Origin: Actinomycetota bacterium
Lineage (GTDB): Bacteria; Actinomycetota; Actinomycetes; Nanopelagicales; Nanopelagicaceae
Assembly (NCBI GenBank): GCA_009705025.1
Contig: WLDA01000035.1
Span: forward strand, 1-7,758
DNA: 7,758 nt
Reading direction: 5' to 3'
Under the pieces are notes generated by a model. It saw nothing but the letters and a program-made list of their open reading frames with translations. It did not search any database and was not told the origin of the DNA. Positions within the stretch are counted from its first letter, which is position 1; each line of letters begins with the position of its first letter. Both the position numbers and the translations under genes were made by a program. Positions 1-6,332 of the stretch are shown in pieces.

Positions 1-1463
<1,463 letters not shown>

Positions 1464-1472
1464 AAATGTTTG

Positions 1473-1543
1473 GTTGGCCGGATGTGTTAACCGGCAACAC
1501 CAAACTCCGCAGCGAGGAGACCGGTTGTTAGGCCTCGCTACGG
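1473..1543 (-). ncRNA. LEU-element-like leader RNA: pseudoknot with competing hairpin upstream of leuA
   Basis: Seen on the minus strand: CCGTAGCGAGG (1543-1533) pairs with CCTCGCTGCGG (1517-1507) as an 11-bp stem with one G-U pair and a 15-base loop. The loop carries AACCGG (1526-1521), which is complementary to CCGGTT (1494-1489) downstream; pairing them makes an H-type pseudoknot. The same CCGGTT segment overlaps a second hairpin, GTTGCCGG (1498-1491) with CCGGCCAAC (1481-1473), which has 8 bp, one bulge and a 9-base loop, so the two folds exclude each other. A conserved pseudoknot called the LEU element is known upstream of leuA in most Actinobacteria, and this fits that description. No U-run follows the second hairpin, so control of translation is more likely than an intrinsic terminator (inference). 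Confidence 0.82.
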
Positions 1544-1572
1544 CGGATAAGGAGTAGTCCGCGAAGCTTCAT
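1528..1572 (-). CDS. leuA leader peptide (14 aa, Leu-Leu-Leu-Ile run)
   Basis: A small frame reads MKLRGLLLIRRSEA and then TAA. Four of its 14 residues are leucine, with three consecutive Leu codons (CTA CTC CTT, 1557-1549) followed by Ile. Its last codons form the 5' arm of the 11-bp hairpin of the leader RNA, so a ribosome paused on the Leu codons would sit directly before that arm and hinder the stem. This is the arrangement expected for a leucine-sensing attenuator peptide. There is no clear Shine-Dalgarno sequence; the candidate -10 hexamer ends 11 bases before the ATG, so the mRNA may have only a few bases of 5' leader. It is too short for routine gene calling. Translation is inferred from context, not proven. 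Confidence 0.8.
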   Translation of the reverse strand: MKLRGLLLIRRSEA

Positions 1573-1583
1573 AAGGCTCAAAG

Positions 1584-1611
1584 AGTATCGCGTGGGGCGC
1601 TATTGAATCAA
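1584..1611 (-). promoter_or_regulatory. candidate leuA leader promoter
   Basis: On the minus strand TTGATT (1611-1606) and GATACT (1589-1584) are spaced by 16 bases and each match four of six positions of the -35 and -10 consensus. Transcription would start near 1577, just before the leader peptide ATG at 1572. The -35 hexamer lies inside the last codons of the upstream heliorhodopsin gene. No terminator is visible between the heliorhodopsin stop and this site, so read-through from upstream is also possible. Confidence 0.45.
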
Positions 1612-2361
1612 GGTGGAGGCAAAAATCTGCCATGCAAGAGCAGATTTAGCCACAAGCGAGAGTGTTATATATGTCTTCTCTCCCCGCAGATACTGCGCCC
1701 ACTTTCCAACTTTCTTGTATTGAAGGTATTGAACGATTGCAAAAGTATTGAATAGAACGAATAGCGAGATAACGATCCCATAGACAAATGCTGGTGCTTT
1801 TGTATCTCCTGGGCCACCGATTGCAAAAATGTAAAATACGAGTGCAAGCCAAGGAACGATGCCTGCAATGCAACCAAAAATAAATGGCAACCAACCGCCA
1901 TTGCCTGGCTCTTCATATTTCTCTTGCAGCCAGCCAAAGAGGATCATGGATGCGTTGACACCAAAAATGGAAACAATTGCTGCAACATCAGAAATTCCAC
2001 AAATCTGAGCGATAAGAACAATCATCACTGAAGAGCTAATTGAATATTCAACCCAGCGGAAATAATTGCGATTTGATGCAAGGCCTGCGCTATAGCGAGT
2101 GAAAAAAGTTGGACTTACTACTAAAAAATGAAAGAGCGCGGAGAGTCCCAAAAAGATTGCAACTGCCAGACCAATAGGAGTCTCAAGTAACGTGATTGGC
2201 TCTGCAAAAGTACTTCCTGGAGGCCCTGCCATATAACGAGCAACAATAGGAAGTGTGAAATCATTTGCTAGAACAAGAACAACAACCATTTGAGCTAGGT
2301 GGAAAAAACCTGCAATGAGGTTGTAGTTGCGAATACTCGCGGCATTAGTCTCTTTAGTCAT
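1600..2361 (-). CDS. heliorhodopsin
   Basis: A 253-residue seven-helix retinal protein of the heliorhodopsin family, the same length as the founding actinobacterial protein 48C12 as I recall it. Helices lie at about 13-33, 58-82, 100-122, 127-146, 158-182, 190-213 and 229-250. The helix 7 motif LSLVAKSALAWQ gives the retinal Schiff-base lysine Lys239 with Ser235 nearby. Helix 3 WVEYSISSSVM gives the counter-ion Glu105. His21 and His78 match the conserved His pair of the family. Helix 4 to its loop (GVNASMILFGWLQEKY) is also characteristic. Known of the family: the N-terminus faces the cytoplasm, opposite to type 1 rhodopsins, there is no ion pumping, and the photocycle is slow, suggesting a sensory or regulatory role. 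The gene starts 24 bases after the glutamine synthetase stop and is probably co-transcribed with it. No Shine-Dalgarno sequence is evident; TAACCT six bases before the ATG may allow a leaderless transcript. A heliorhodopsin of this group has been reported to bind glutamine synthetase. Confidence 0.97.
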   Translation of the reverse strand: MTKETNAASIRNYNLIAGFFHLAQMVVVLVLANDFTLPIVARYMAGPPGSTFAEPITLLETPIGLAVAIFLGLSALFHFLVVSPTFFTRYSAGLASNRNYFRWVEYSISSSVMIVLIAQICGISDVAAIVSIFGVNASMILFGWLQEKYEEPGNGGWLPFIFGCIAGIVPWLALVFYIFAIGGPGDTKAPAFVYGIVISLFVLFNTFAIVQYLQYKKVGKWAQYLRGEKTYITLSLVAKSALAWQIFASTLIQ

Positions 2362-2367
2362 GTAAAG

Positions 2368-2373
2368 AGGTTA
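2368..2373 (-). promoter_or_regulatory. possible leaderless -10 box for heliorhodopsin
   Basis: TAACCT (TAnnnT type) ends exactly six bases before the heliorhodopsin ATG, the same spacing as at glnA and nadE. No convincing -35 hexamer is seen and the match to TATAAT is weak, so this is only a candidate for a transcript independent of glnA. Confidence 0.25.
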
Positions 2374-2385
2374 CCCCAGGATCGA

Positions 2386-3702
2386 TTACAAAACAGGTAA
2401 GTAACGATCCAATTCATACGCGCTAACTTGGCGGCGATAGTCCTGCCATTCCGCACGCTTATTTCGCAATACATATTCAAATACATGCTCGCCCAGTGTC
2501 TCGCGAACAAGGGCGCTCTTCTCCATAGCAGCAATTGCTTCATCAAGATTAGCTGGCAAAGTTTGCGGTTCACTTGTATCAGTGAGTTCGTATTTTCCTT
2601 CAACTCCCGCAAGACCTGCTGCCAACATCACGGCGTAGGCAAGGTATGGATTACATGCAGAATCAGGTGAGCGAAATTCGATTCGAGTTGAGTTTTCTTT
2701 CTTTGGCTTATACATGGGAACGCGAACAAGTGCGCCGCGATTACTTGGACCCCAATTTACAAATGCAGGTGCTTCTCCCCCGCCATGTAAACGCTTATAT
2801 GAATTCACCCATTGATTTGTGATCGCCGTAATTTCTGGTGCATGCTTCAAGATACCTGCAATAAATGAGCGTCCTGTCGCTGAAAGATTGAATTCTGCAC
2901 TTGGATCATAAAATGCATTTTCTTCACCTTTGAAAAGTGAGACGTGAGTATGCATTCCACTTCCAGGATGTTCGGTAAATGGCTTCGGCATAAAGGATGC
3001 GTAGAAACCTTGCTCTAACGCAACTTCTTTGATGACATGTCTAAAAGTCATGATGTTATCGGCTGTACTTAATGCATCGGCGTAACGCAAATCAATTTCT
3101 TGTTGTCCAGGTGCACCTTCATGATGGCTAAATTCAACGCTAATTCCCATCGCTTCAAGCATCGTGATTGCTTGACGGCGAAAATCGTGGCCAACAACTG
3201 CTGGTGTGTGATCGAAATATCCACCTTGGTCTACAGGTACAGGTGCTTTTCCATTTTCAGGTTTTTCTTTGAATAAGAAAAATTCAATCTCTGGATGGGT
3301 GTAACAGGTGTAACCCATCTCCGCAGCCTTATTGAGAGTACGACGCAAAACATTGCGTGGATCCGATGGTGATGGCGTGCCATCTGGCATGGTGATATCG
3401 CAGAACATTCGCGCCGCCCCTGGTGCCTCTGTGCGCCATGGCAAGATTGAAAAAGAAGTTGGATCTGGTTTTGCCAACATATCCGATTCAGTTACGCGAG
3501 CAAAGCCCTCGATTGCAGAGCCATCAAAACCAATACCTTCGCTAAATGCACTCTGGAGTTCTGCCGGTGCAATCGCTACTGATTTAAGAAAGCCAAGTAC
3601 GTCCGTAAACCACAATCGCACGAATCGAATATTGCGCTCTTCTAATGTGCGCAAGACGAAATCTTCTTGCTTACTCATATGTTCTGAATCATTTGGGGAC
3701 AT
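2386..3702 (-). CDS. glnA: type I glutamine synthetase, GlnA2-like, without adenylylation motif
   Basis: Forms glutamine from glutamate, ammonia and ATP in the cytoplasm, normally as a dodecamer. Motifs in order: DGSAIEG (60-66), HPEIEFF (136-142, metal-binding Glu), GAPGQQEIDLR (196-206), the ATP-binding stretch KPFTEHPGSGMHTHVS (240-255), NRGALVRVP (321-329) and RIEFRSPDSACNPY (340-353). From FVLRTLEER onward it resembles actinobacterial GlnA2 (mycobacterial glnA2 type) rather than GlnA1. The NLYDLPPE loop that carries the adenylylated tyrosine in GlnA1 is absent and the region after residue 370 is short, giving 438 residues against about 470-478 for adenylylated enzymes. GlnE-type control is therefore unlikely. 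Start choice: the ATG at 3702 sits six bases after a -10-like hexamer, which suits a leaderless mRNA. The in-frame ATG at 3678 (MSKQEDF) aligns better with GlnA2 proteins and is the alternative. Neither has a Shine-Dalgarno sequence. Confidence 0.95.
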   Translation of the reverse strand: MSPNDSEHMSKQEDFVLRTLEERNIRFVRLWFTDVLGFLKSVAIAPAELQSAFSEGIGFDGSAIEGFARVTESDMLAKPDPTSFSILPWRTEAPGAARMFCDITMPDGTPSPSDPRNVLRRTLNKAAEMGYTCYTHPEIEFFLFKEKPENGKAPVPVDQGGYFDHTPAVVGHDFRRQAITMLEAMGISVEFSHHEGAPGQQEIDLRYADALSTADNIMTFRHVIKEVALEQGFYASFMPKPFTEHPGSGMHTHVSLFKGEENAFYDPSAEFNLSATGRSFIAGILKHAPEITAITNQWVNSYKRLHGGGEAPAFVNWGPSNRGALVRVPMYKPKKENSTRIEFRSPDSACNPYLAYAVMLAAGLAGVEGKYELTDTSEPQTLPANLDEAIAAMEKSALVRETLGEHVFEYVLRNKRAEWQDYRRQVSAYELDRYLPVL

Positions 3703-3751: not shown

Positions 3752-5431
3752 TTACTCTTCGCTCCAGCGTGAAGTCATAGGCAAACGGCGATCTTTTCCA
3801 AATGCTCGAGCTGACACTTTGGCCCCTGGTGGGTACTGACGCCTCTTATATTCTGCCTTATCGACTAATCCAATAACTCGAGTGATAAGGGCGCTATCAA
3901 AGCCCGCTGCAATGAGTGAATCAAATCCTTCGTCTCCATCGACATAGCGCATCAAAACTTTGTCGAGTAATTCGTAATCGGGCAATGAATCAGAATCTTT
4001 TTGATCTGGGCGAAGTTCAGCGCTTGGCTCTTTAGTAATAGAGCGCTCTGGAATAGGTGCTACTTCCCCAGCCGCAATCGCTTGTGCATTTCGCCAACGT
4101 GCAAGTGCCCATACATCTGTTTTATAAATATCTTTGATCGGGGCATAACCTCCGACTGCATCACCATAAAGAGTTGAATATCCGACTGCGAGTTCGCTTT
4201 TATTTCCAGTGGCCAAAACTAGGTGTCCTTCTTGATTTGAAATTCCCATCAAGGTTGTGCCACGAACACGGGCTTGCAGATTTTCCTCCGCTAAACCTTT
4301 GAGTGTCAGATTGGCCATATATGAATCAACCATCGGTGATATTGCAACAGTGCGGAAATGAATACCCGTATTTGCCGCAAACTCTTTGGCATCATCTATG
4401 GAGTGATCGGATGAATATTTACTTGGCATCGCAACACCATTGACACGCTTTGCTCCCAACGCATCTACAGCAATTGCTGCAACAAGTGCTGAATCAATGC
4501 CGCCTGAAAGTCCCAGTACCACAGAGCGGAATCCATTCTTTTCAATGTAGTCGCGCAAACCAAGAACTAGCGCTTTCCACATTTGTTCGACTTCTGAAAT
4601 CTCTGGTGCAATCGAATTAACTACGGGGGAAGTCATAGCTGCTTCATTCTCGCTAATCACAATATCTGGCTTACTAGTAGCGCCCTTTGTCTCAATATCG
4701 AGAACTAATAATTGGTCATCGAATTGAGGAGCTCGTGCAAGTAATTTTCCTTGGGCATCAACAACGATTGTGTCGCCATCGAAGACAAGATCATCTTGCC
4801 CGCCAGTCATATTTACATATGCAAATGGTGCGCCAACTTCTTTAGCCCGTTTTTGTACCAGAGATAATCGGACTCCATCTTTCTTTCGTTCAAATGGTGA
4901 GCCGTTAGGAACTAGAACTAATCCAGGGGTGCGTTTGGCTAAGTCGGCAAGCATTCCCCCGTCTTGCCAAATATCTTCACAGATCGCAAAACCAATATCG
5001 ATGCCATGAACGCGAGCAACTAATGTGCCGTTACCAGATACAAAATTTCGGTACTCATCAAAGACTCCATAGTTGGGCAAGTGGCGCTTTGAATATCGCG
5101 CTTTTATTTGCCCGCCATGTATCAAGGCAATGGCATTTTGAGGCGCGCCATTATTTCGATCCAGATAGCCGACAACAGCTACTAGGTCGCCACATCCATC
5201 GGATTCAATATCTTTGGCAAGTTGTGCAACAGCATCAATGCTGGCACTTTGAAATGATGGTCTCGTAGCTAAATCTTCAACGGGATAACCCGTGAGGATC
5301 ATTTCTGGAAACACTGCGACATGTGCACCCGCACTTTTTGCCTCTTTGAGGTTGGTGCGAACGAGCGCGCTATTGCCAGCAAGATCGCCCACGGTCGGGT
5401 TGATCTGCGCCAGCGCTACACGCAACTTCAT
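3752..5431 (-). CDS. nadE: glutamine-dependent NAD+ synthetase
   Basis: Converts nicotinate adenine dinucleotide to NAD+ using ATP and ammonia released from glutamine; the last step of NAD synthesis, in the cytoplasm. The N-terminal half is a nitrilase-fold glutaminase with the catalytic triad Glu43 (FPEMILTGYP), Lys115 (YSKRHLPNYGVFDE) and Cys151 (FAICEDIWQ). The C-terminal half is the synthetase, with the PP-loop SGGIDS (309-314), followed by ATGNKSELAVGYSTLYGD and SITKEPSAELRPDQKDSDSLPDY. At 559 residues it belongs to the shorter two-domain bacterial form rather than the roughly 680-residue mycobacterial form. The ATG at 5431 opens directly into the glutaminase core (MKLRVALAQINPTVGD), so the start is secure. 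It has no Shine-Dalgarno sequence, but a TACACT hexamer six bases upstream. It is the first of the minus-strand series, 49 bases before glnA, whose product supplies its glutamine. Confidence 0.97.
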   Translation of the reverse strand: MKLRVALAQINPTVGDLAGNSALVRTNLKEAKSAGAHVAVFPEMILTGYPVEDLATRPSFQSASIDAVAQLAKDIESDGCGDLVAVVGYLDRNNGAPQNAIALIHGGQIKARYSKRHLPNYGVFDEYRNFVSGNGTLVARVHGIDIGFAICEDIWQDGGMLADLAKRTPGLVLVPNGSPFERKKDGVRLSLVQKRAKEVGAPFAYVNMTGGQDDLVFDGDTIVVDAQGKLLARAPQFDDQLLVLDIETKGATSKPDIVISENEAAMTSPVVNSIAPEISEVEQMWKALVLGLRDYIEKNGFRSVVLGLSGGIDSALVAAIAVDALGAKRVNGVAMPSKYSSDHSIDDAKEFAANTGIHFRTVAISPMVDSYMANLTLKGLAEENLQARVRGTTLMGISNQEGHLVLATGNKSELAVGYSTLYGDAVGGYAPIKDIYKTDVWALARWRNAQAIAAGEVAPIPERSITKEPSAELRPDQKDSDSLPDYELLDKVLMRYVDGDEGFDSLIAAGFDSALITRVIGLVDKAEYKRRQYPPGAKVSARAFGKDRRLPMTSRWSEE

Positions 5432-5519: not shown

Positions 5520-6332
5520 ATGGAATCCCTCTATGGCGGAGCTACGCATCGCCGTGTCACCATCCTTGATCTTGCTGCGGCAAAAAAACGCGGCGAAAAA
5601 TGGGCAATGCTGACTTCCTATGAATCGATGACAGCGCAAATATTTGATGAGGCAGGGATACCTGTTCTGCTCGTTGGCGATAGTGCAGGAAATAATTTTC
5701 TTGGCGGAGAAAACACAATTGCGGTCACTGTCGATGAATTGATTCCTCTGACTCGCGCCGTTGTACGTGGATCAAAGCGGGCACTTGTTATCGCAGATCT
5801 TCCATTTGGCTCGTATGAATCCTCAGTCGAACAAGCAATTGCAACTTCGACCCGCTTTTTCAAAGAGGCGGGTGCGATGGCAGTAAAACTAGAGGGTGCG
5901 CATATTGCCACTGTTGAAAAATTAGTCGCGAGTGGAATTCCAGTGATGGGCCACCTTGGCCTGACTCCTCAGGCCCTTCATCAATTAGGTGGGTATCGCG
6001 TTCAGGGTCGCACTGATGGAGATTCAATTCTTGAGGCTGCAATAGCCCTTGAAAAAGCAGGGGCATTTGCCATTGTTCTAGAACTTATTCCAGGTGAATT
6101 AGCGCAGAAAATTACTAACGCGCTATCGATTCCAACGGTTGGAATTGGCGCAGGAAATAGTTGCGATGCCCAGGTCTTGGTATGGACAGATTTGATGGGT
6201 ATTACGAAAAATCCCCCTAAACTTGCAAAGGCATATCGAAATTTGCGGGCAGAGATGCTTGCTGCCACCACCGAATATGCAAACGATGTCAGAAGCGGCA
6301 CATTTCCCGGAGAAGAGCAGACTTTTCATTGA
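5520..6332 (+). CDS. panB: 3-methyl-2-oxobutanoate hydroxymethyltransferase (ketopantoate hydroxymethyltransferase)
   Basis: First step of pantothenate (and so CoA) synthesis in the cytoplasm: a hydroxymethyl group from methylene-tetrahydrofolate is added to 2-oxoisovalerate to give ketopantoate. The 270-residue length is normal. Family motifs: MLTSYESMTAQIFDEAGIPVLLVGDSAGN with metal ligand Asp54, the ADLPFGSY motif with Asp93, AVKLEGA with Lys123 and Glu125, the VLELIP motif with probable catalytic Glu188, and GIGAGNSCDAQVLVWTDLMG. Residue roles are assigned by similarity to the E. coli enzyme. The start at 5520 is preceded by AAGGA. The gene is divergent from nadE and overlaps the next gene by four bases. 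A glnA2 gene read away from a nearby panB is also found in Mycobacterium tuberculosis, so part of this neighbourhood is old in actinobacteria. It shares its substrate with LeuA, encoded at the other end of the window. Confidence 0.97.
   Translation: MESLYGGATHRRVTILDLAAAKKRGEKWAMLTSYESMTAQIFDEAGIPVLLVGDSAGNNFLGGENTIAVTVDELIPLTRAVVRGSKRALVIADLPFGSYESSVEQAIATSTRFFKEAGAMAVKLEGAHIATVEKLVASGIPVMGHLGLTPQALHQLGGYRVQGRTDGDSILEAAIALEKAGAFAIVLELIPGELAQKITNALSIPTVGIGAGNSCDAQVLVWTDLMGITKNPPKLAKAYRNLRAEMLAATTEYANDVRSGTFPGEEQTFH

What the first reader, a model, noticed from the sequence alone, without database searches (positions are those of the whole stretch)
1600..3702. Heliorhodopsin directly downstream of a GlnA2-type glutamine synthetase: a candidate light-to-nitrogen module
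Seen: the two genes are 24 bases apart on the same strand, with full active-site motifs in both (Lys239 and Glu105 in the rhodopsin; all GS motifs in GlnA). Known: a heliorhodopsin from a freshwater actinobacterium has been reported to bind and regulate glutamine synthetase. Inference: this pair is the physical partner set. Since the GS here lacks the adenylylation loop, the membrane photoreceptor could replace GlnE-type control, and the neighbouring NadE, a glutamine consumer, would feel the effect.
Basis: partly seen in the sequence, partly recalled or inferred. Interest (0 to 1): 0.8.

Follow-up and report, generated by a model that had tools for sequence, protein, structure and literature searches.

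The report
Light sensor beside an amine-type ligase
A freshwater bacterium carries a light-sensing membrane protein gene 24 bases after a glutamine-synthetase-like gene, an arrangement already published for its relatives; the enzyme is the GlnA2 type, which is predicted to attach glutamate to amines such as polyamines, so light would likely tune amine salvage rather than the cell's main ammonia assimilation.

Summary
The pair is real: heliorhodopsin (1600-2361, minus strand) starts 24 bases after the stop of a glutamine-synthetase-family gene (2386-3702), behind nadE. It is not new: the operon, with binding and weak light activation, is published for acI strain IMCC26103 (PMC9529153), and a matching transcript class in PMC8612252. 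The finding misreads the enzyme. Two active-site residues of canonical GS, Ser53 and Asn264, are Ala and Pro. It is the actinobacterial GlnA2 orthologue: 66-77% identity in 21 of 23 other families, with glnE downstream in 16 of 16 assessable loci. Streptomyces GlnA2 is a gamma-glutamylpolyamine synthetase without in-vivo GS activity (PMC8998196). A canonical GlnA1 was read in 8 of 11 acI genomes, GlnE in 0 of 11. Heliorhodopsin sits where relatives have glnE, but comes and goes: of 80 close heliorhodopsins 34 are GS-linked, 42 not, 4 undecided, and the loop lysines needed for binding are about equally conserved in both. Most likely: a light-tuned GlnA2-type amine ligase. A new member of a known kind with a testable re-reading.

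The parts
1600..2361 (-). heliorhodopsin, 253 aa; Glu105 at 2047-2049, Lys239 at 1645-1647
   Evidence: (NF038020 equivalog)
1702..1716 (-). third cytoplasmic-loop lysines K216, K217, K220 (needed for GS binding in the IMCC26103 orthologue)
   Evidence: PMC9529153 Table 1
2362..2385 (-). 24-base gap between GS stop and heliorhodopsin start; no terminator-like site called in it
2386..3702 (-). glnA2 (glutamine-synthetase family, 438 aa, or 430 aa if the second Met is the start)
3514..3516 (-). codon for Ala63, at the place of Ser53 of canonical GS
2965..2967 (-). codon for Pro246, at the place of Asn264 of canonical GS
3752..5431 (-). nadE, glutamine-type NAD+ synthase, first gene of the same-strand run
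5520..6332 (+). panB, divergent
1528..1572 (-). small leucine-rich ORF MKLRGLLLIRRSEA before leuA (leader of a LEU element); marks the 3' border of the heliorhodopsin gene against the leuA unit
   Evidence: LEU element described in PMC1262725 (passages)
1..1449 (-). leuA (2-isopropylmalate synthase), runs off the window

Best explanation
The window carries the acI operon nadE-glnA2-heliorhodopsin, a published type, in which the heliorhodopsin likely binds the neighbouring enzyme through its cytoplasmic-loop lysines and would modestly raise its activity in light; that enzyme is the GlnA2 orthologue, predicted to join glutamate to amines such as polyamines rather than to serve as the cell's main glutamine synthetase. 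Shown here: gene order, orthology of the enzyme to the class-wide GlnA2 that has glnE downstream, Ser53->Ala and Asn264->Pro, a separate canonical GlnA1 in 8 of 11 acI genomes and GlnE in none of 11. Shown by others on the IMCC26103 orthologues: binding (Kd 6.06 +/- 5.44 uM in vesicles), a 1.5-fold higher kcat/Km in light than in dark, and near-loss of binding in K216Q. Inferred: that this pair binds likewise, that the three genes form one transcript here, and that the real substrate is an amine.
For: Orthologous pair characterised: 76% / 88% identity, binding lysines conserved. GlnA2 orthology: 21 of 23 families at 66-77% identity, three of them partial; one supported clade (99) apart from GlnA1 (100); glnE downstream on the same strand in 16 of 16 assessable loci, 11 of them within 0.9 kb. 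Residue signature: Pro (17) or Ala (3) at site 264 in 20 of 20 non-acI GlnA2 loci that cover it; Ala at site 53 in 18 of 21 (3 Ser); 11 of 11 acI GlnA2 have Ala/Pro; 8 of 8 acI GlnA1 rows have Ser/Asn. Streptomyces GlnA2 lacks the same two residues, glutamylates polyamines and does not complement a GS mutant (PMC8998196, passages). The published acI enzyme is a very poor GS (kcat/Km 5.4 per M per s; the paper quotes 900-28,000 for other recombinant GSs). A class-I amidotransferase lies directly downstream of glnA2 in 6 of 19 non-acI loci and 1.9 kb downstream in a 7th. acI carry putative polyamine transporters (PMC5574706, passages; PotA above cut-off in 10 of 11 acI genomes). Retinal-forming BCD enzyme in the window's own genome.
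Against: No acI enzyme has been tested with amines in anything I saw. The IMCC26103 enzyme releases Pi with glutamate, ATP and ammonia and partly complements an E. coli glnA knockout. Its published light effect is small, K216Q also gained 1.27-fold in light, and cells co-expressing both proteins grew worse than with the enzyme alone. NCBIfam's type-I GS model passes its cut-off (436.8 against 429.15 bits), the glutamylputrescine model does not (299.4 against 650). A 2005 paper titled as showing that all four M. tuberculosis glnA genes encode GS activities exists (seen only as a reference); one review passage says the GS-like enzymes lack GS activity, another that they were reported active (PMC9397018). 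Five of 11 acI genomes have a third GS-like gene, in an amine-type cluster where read, which could carry that function instead. No strong PuuD homologue in acI. GlnA1 was not seen in the window's own incomplete assembly (1 GS match). GS linkage of heliorhodopsin is not stable, and the binding lysines do not track it. PMC8998196 prints Ser53->Glu55 for GlnA2, whereas a Streptomyces-type GlnA2 (L154) has Ala there in my alignment.
Confidence: 0.5

Rival explanations
1. The heliorhodopsin tunes a genuine, if slow, ammonia-using glutamine synthetase, as the published work concludes; the operon is a light-to-glutamine module.
For: Ammonia-dependent activity and partial glnA complementation of the orthologue; Asp50, Tyr179, Glu327 and the other catalytic sites checked are kept; NCBIfam type-I GS call.
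Against: Asn264 lost in 20 of 20 and Ser53 in 18 of 21 non-acI GlnA2 loci, both lost in 11 of 11 acI GlnA2, while 8 of 8 acI GlnA1 rows keep them; catalytic efficiency about 170- to 5,000-fold below the range quoted for other GSs; S. coelicolor GlnA2 not a GS in vivo.
Confidence: 0.25
2. The heliorhodopsin is a mobile passenger expressed from whichever operon it lands in; its true partner or function is elsewhere and the GlnA2 link is incidental.
For: 34 of 80 close loci linked, 42 not, 4 undecided; 3 changes on the careful tree, one-clade model rejected only marginally (p 0.049); clean border between glnA2 stop and the leuA leader; 12 of 29 assessable acI GlnA2 loci have no heliorhodopsin within the held downstream stretch; binding lysines about equally conserved when unlinked.
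Against: Linkage is clustered on the tree (0 of 500 shuffles as low) with gaps of 24-61 bases in 29 of 34 linked loci; published binding and co-transcript. GlnA2 was found in 30 of 37 acI genomes, so an unlinked heliorhodopsin could bind it in trans.
Confidence: 0.2
3. The heliorhodopsin replaces GlnE, taking both its gene slot and its role as controller of glutamine synthesis.
For: Relatives have glnE downstream of glnA2 on the same strand in 16 of 16 assessable loci (3 bases to 6.7 kb away, 11 within 0.9 kb); 0 of 11 acI genomes have GlnE; heliorhodopsin sits in that slot.
Against: acI without heliorhodopsin at this place (G015, G062, G064) also lack GlnE; in C. glutamicum GlnE modifies GlnA1, not GlnA2 (PMC9397018 passage); acI GlnA1 keeps Tyr397 in 8 of 8 rows.
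Confidence: 0.05

Closest known systems
AbHeR-AbGS operon of Actinobacteria bacterium IMCC26103 (PMC9529153)
   Same: Same gene order panB / nadE-GS-HeR / leuA, same Ala and Pro in the enzyme, same binding lysines
   Different: IMCC26103 has a Gfo/Idh/MocA gene between HeR and leuA (paper) and a 36-base GS-HeR gap; here the gap is 24 and the leuA leader follows directly
Class 1 HeR transcripts of freshwater Planktophila/Nanopelagicus (PMC8612252)
   Same: Transcript carrying HeR with GS and NAD synthetase
   Different: Metatranscriptome contigs, not this genome
Streptomyces coelicolor GlnA2 (SCO2241), gamma-glutamylpolyamine synthetase (PMC8998196)
   Same: Lacks Ser53 and has Asn264->Pro; a Streptomyces-type genome (G054, GlnA2 96% identical to a cluster named Streptomyces) has the orthologue upstream of glnE
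   Different: No heliorhodopsin beside it in G054; 438 against 458 aa and 69-72% identity to the G054 protein; the S. coelicolor sequence itself was not compared
Photolyase- and ABC-transporter-linked heliorhodopsins (PMC11109279, passages)
   Same: Heliorhodopsin as light-dependent binding partner of a neighbour's product
   Different: Other partners and other heliorhodopsins

Membership tests
Heliorhodopsin | Family profile above cut-off, Schiff-base Lys and Glu counterion | tested here: met
HeR-GS operon group of PMC9529153 | HeR directly downstream of GS on one strand, behind nadE | tested here: met
HeR-GS operon group of PMC9529153 | K216/K217/K220 in the third cytoplasmic loop | tested here: met
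   but also met by 45, 43 and 46 of 46 unlinked HeRs
HeR-GS operon group of PMC9529153 | GS-linked HeRs group together on the tree | tested here: inconclusive
   3 changes on the careful tree, AU p 0.049 against one clade; 4 changes on the quick tree
HeR-GS operon group of PMC9529153 | Physical binding and light activation | not testable with these tools
   shown by others only for the orthologue
GlnA2 of Actinomycetes | Clade with class-wide orthologues that have glnE downstream; Ser53 and Asn264 replaced | tested here: met
   (in acI itself glnE is absent; 3 of 21 non-acI members keep Ser53)
Gamma-glutamylpolyamine synthetase | ATP-dependent ligation of glutamate to polyamines | not testable with these tools
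   inferred from the Streptomyces orthologue; NF045547 (glutamylputrescine synthetase) below its cut-off
Canonical type-I glutamine synthetase | Active-site Asp50, Ser53, Tyr179, Asn264, Glu327 | tested here: not met
   Ser53 and Asn264 replaced, the other three kept; profile TIGR00653 narrowly passed

The most novel reading that the evidence does not exclude
Heliorhodopsin in acI is a light-driven activator of a GlnA2 amine ligase: sunlight switches on glutamylation, and so salvage or detoxification, of polyamines released by phytoplankton. The sensor was dropped into the slot after glnA2 where relatives keep glnE, in a lineage that had lost adenylylation control altogether, and the published 'glutamine synthetase' activity is a side reaction of that enzyme.
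Probability: 0.3. Interest if true: 0.75.

Novelty: new member of a known kind. Interest (0 to 1): 0.42.

Why it matters
Heliorhodopsins have few known partners. If the partner here is an amine ligase and not a glutamine synthetase, the published enzymatic role in acI, a highly abundant group of lake bacteria, has been assayed with the wrong substrate, which would explain its tiny activity. The test is a simple substrate swap on proteins already cloned by others.

Tried and rejected
Rejected: 'replaces GlnE' (acI without heliorhodopsin at this locus lack GlnE too). Rejected as evidence: conservation of the binding lysines, since it does not track linkage and position 216 is K or R in 18 of 18 heliorhodopsins examined outside the acI family. 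The columns that differ between linked and unlinked heliorhodopsins (151, 124, 61, 63, 188 tried) were put to independent pairs on the careful tree: only 2 supported pairs exist, so no test is possible. PF07722 as a marker of glutamyl-GABA hydrolase is too broad, all 14 control genomes ring; only the score gap is informative. TIGR01187 also rings in all 14 controls (over its cut-off in 5). Promoter scan: fewer sites than in shuffles (5 against a mean of 12.5), so unusable. Rfam: no match in the window at gathering thresholds. The PDB search gave no chain that I could recognise as GlnA2 (best 440 bits). No structure was predicted. The tree missed several GC-rich GlnA2 loci because of my ORF picker; they were added by tblastn for the residue table, not for the tree; that table also holds one genome (G038) twice and a fragment (L164) that covers site 53 only. 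Recalled, from no call: the glnA/glnII/glnE/glnA2 order of S. coelicolor.

Full report
WHAT IS THERE. The window is one contig of a 0.93 Mb, 63% complete genome; its closest named relatives include Candidatus Planktophila and other acI freshwater actinobacteria. On the minus strand run nadE (3752-5431), a glutamine-synthetase-family gene (2386-3702), heliorhodopsin (1600-2361) and leuA (1-1449); panB and an MFS transporter run divergently on the plus strand. The heliorhodopsin starts 24 bases after the GS stop and has Glu105, Lys239 and the loop lysines K216, K217, K220.

ALREADY PUBLISHED. The pair is not a discovery. For strain IMCC26103 the same operon was described, with binding (Kd 6.06 +/- 5.44 uM in vesicles, 100 uM in detergent), near-loss of binding in K216Q, and kcat/Km of 5.4 for the enzyme alone, 8.0 with heliorhodopsin in the dark and 12.2 in light; K216Q also rose 1.27-fold in light (PMC9529153; I read the abstract, sections 6-9 and part 1 of section 10). 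A transcript class with heliorhodopsin, GS and NAD synthetase was recovered by strand-specific metatranscriptomics (PMC8612252, passages and section 8). GS-containing operons are one of ten heliorhodopsin groups in PMC11109279 (passages). The window's proteins are 76% (HeR) and 88% (GS) identical to the IMCC26103 pair and 86% / 82% to IMCC25003.

THE ENZYME IS GlnA2. A clear orthologue (66-77% identity, three of them partial) is found in 21 of 23 sampled genomes, each from a different family of the same class; 22 of those 23 gave no heliorhodopsin match. I read the surroundings of 19 of these loci. glnE lies downstream on the same strand in 16 of 16 that extend far enough, 3 bases to 6.7 kb away and within 0.9 kb in 11; 3 are cut by contig ends. 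nadE lies within 10 kb in 15 of 19, always divergent from glnA2, unlike in acI where it is co-directional, and panB was found in 13 of 19. A class-I amidotransferase lies directly downstream of glnA2 in 6 of 19 (one of them the query's own locus) and 1.9 kb downstream in a seventh. On a 45-row tree the window enzyme falls in a 22-row clade (support 99) of these proteins, apart from the 14-row clade (100) of GlnA1 and E. coli GlnA (quick method, some class members missing, see Tried and rejected).

RESIDUES. On E. coli/Salmonella numbering, 11 of 11 acI GlnA2 have Ala at 53 and Pro at 264. Of 20 non-acI GlnA2 loci that cover site 264, 17 have Pro, 3 Ala, none Asn; of 21 that cover site 53, 18 have Ala and 3 Ser. 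8 of 8 acI GlnA1 rows keep Ser53, Asn264 and Tyr397. The published acI paper noted the two changes and suggested low activity or another reaction, without the words GlnA2 or polyamine. In S. coelicolor, GlnA2 is reported to lack the same two active-site residues, to glutamylate polyamines, to be induced by them, and not to complement a GS-negative mutant, although it shows activity with high ammonium (PMC8998196, passages). That text prints Ser53->Glu55; a Streptomyces-type GlnA2 in my alignment has Ala there (L154).

NOT IN PRINT, AS FAR AS SEARCHED. In the held library, no paper holds heliorhodopsin with GlnA2 or with GlnE as whole words; the only one with heliorhodopsin and 'glutamyl' is the 2022 paper itself; four hold heliorhodopsin and polyamine, none with GS in its title (listing and abstract openings only). 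Most subscription journals and all preprints are not held.

GlnE AND GlnA1. GlnE is absent from 11 of 11 acI genomes searched, five of them named, and present in 3 of 3 other class members. A full-length canonical GlnA1 was read in 8 of the same 11; G001 and G005 gave fragments that I did not assign, and the window's own incomplete genome gave only GlnA2. So the heliorhodopsin is not standing in for GlnE on GlnA1; it only sits in the gene slot after glnA2 where relatives have glnE. In 10 of the 12 acI GlnA2 loci without heliorhodopsin, leuA starts 145-184 bases after glnA2, and in two loci read in full the leuA leader follows the glnA2 stop directly, so the glnE loss need not be tied to the heliorhodopsin.

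HOW FIRM IS THE LINK. Of 80 named loci with the closest heliorhodopsins, 34 are linked to GS (gap 24-61 bases in 29, 397-973 in 5; the script's gaps count the stop codon), 42 are not (39 of them with at least 1.5 kb of upstream sequence, 3 with 968-1367 bases) and 4 are undecidable. Linked and unlinked interleave: 4 changes on the quick tree, 3 on the careful tree of 99 rows, bootstrap range 3-5, one-clade model 47 log units worse, AU p 0.049. They are nonetheless far more clustered than chance (0 of 500 shuffles as low). From the enzyme's side, 30 of 37 acI genomes gave a GlnA2; of 29 assessable loci 17 have heliorhodopsin downstream and 12 do not. In a class-wide draw 56 of 296 genomes had a heliorhodopsin; of the 27 new loci fetched from it, 9 are from the acI family (5 GS-linked) and 18 from other families, of which 17 are assessable and 0 have GS within about 1.5 kb. 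Loop lysines: K216 48 of 49 linked and 45 of 46 unlinked; K217 49 of 49 and 43 of 46; K220 46 of 49 and 46 of 46. They are therefore no signature of the GS partnership; either they serve something general, or unlinked heliorhodopsins also meet GlnA2.

AMINE METABOLISM IN acI. acI were predicted to take up polyamines, with binding-protein expression in one clade (PMC5574706, passages). The PotA profile passes its cut-off in 10 of 11 acI genomes. A third GS-like gene (5 of 11 acI genomes) lies, in the locus scanned in full (L197), with an amino-acid permease, a short-chain dehydrogenase and an aldehyde dehydrogenase (closest model aminobutyraldehyde dehydrogenase, below cut-off), and near a class-I amidotransferase. 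It could share or own the amine role. No strong PuuD relative was found in acI (best 57 bits against 193-230 as best in the three other class members).

LIGHT SENSING CAPACITY. A retinal-forming BCD dioxygenase is found in 11 of 15 acI handles, the window's own genome included, and a type-1 rhodopsin in 15 of 15 (two pairs of handles are the same genome).

VERDICT. The best-supported mechanism is light-modulated GlnA2; that its work is amine glutamylation is an inference from orthology, residues and the enzyme's poor GS kinetics, and one substrate-swap assay would settle it.

Noticed in passing
window 1450-1572 (minus strand): leuA is preceded by a leader ORF with three consecutive Leu codons (MKLRGLLLIRRSEA) and a conserved downstream hairpin-like stretch, resembling the actinobacterial LEU element described in PMC1262725; conserved with and without heliorhodopsin upstream in the 10 loci aligned. 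The structure was not folded.
   Followed up: partly
L112-L119 (acI GlnA1): acI GlnA1 keeps the adenylylation Tyr397 in 8 of 8 rows although no GlnE was found in 11 of 11 acI genomes.
   Followed up: no
L176, L179, L181, L184, L186, L188: A class-I glutamine amidotransferase directly follows glnA2 in 6 of 19 non-acI loci, suggestive of a glutamyl-amide hydrolase partner.
   Followed up: partly
L197:4996-10078: Third acI GS-like gene in a permease - SDR - GS - aldehyde dehydrogenase run, with an amidotransferase and an Fe-ADH next to it on the other strand.
   Followed up: partly
L193 and L195, about 7.7-9.1 kb: In these two acI loci without heliorhodopsin, two extra ORFs (308 and 170 aa) lie between nadE and glnA2.
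   Followed up: no
L194:8840-9484: In IMCC26077 a 214-aa ORF lies between glnA2 and leuA, the same slot that heliorhodopsin takes elsewhere.
   Followed up: no
G014, G015, G005, G062: Heliorhodopsin-bearing acI genomes with no BCD dioxygenase match; retinal source unclear.
   Followed up: no
L024/L031 (G008): Heliorhodopsin match split over two frames with a TAA inside one piece, a possibly broken copy or a sequencing error.
   Followed up: no
L038, L053, L057, L058, L084, L108: Public contigs titled Bifidobacterium breve carry acI-type heliorhodopsins, three of them (L038, L057, L108) with the acI glnA2 operon; the record titles look mislabelled.
   Followed up: no
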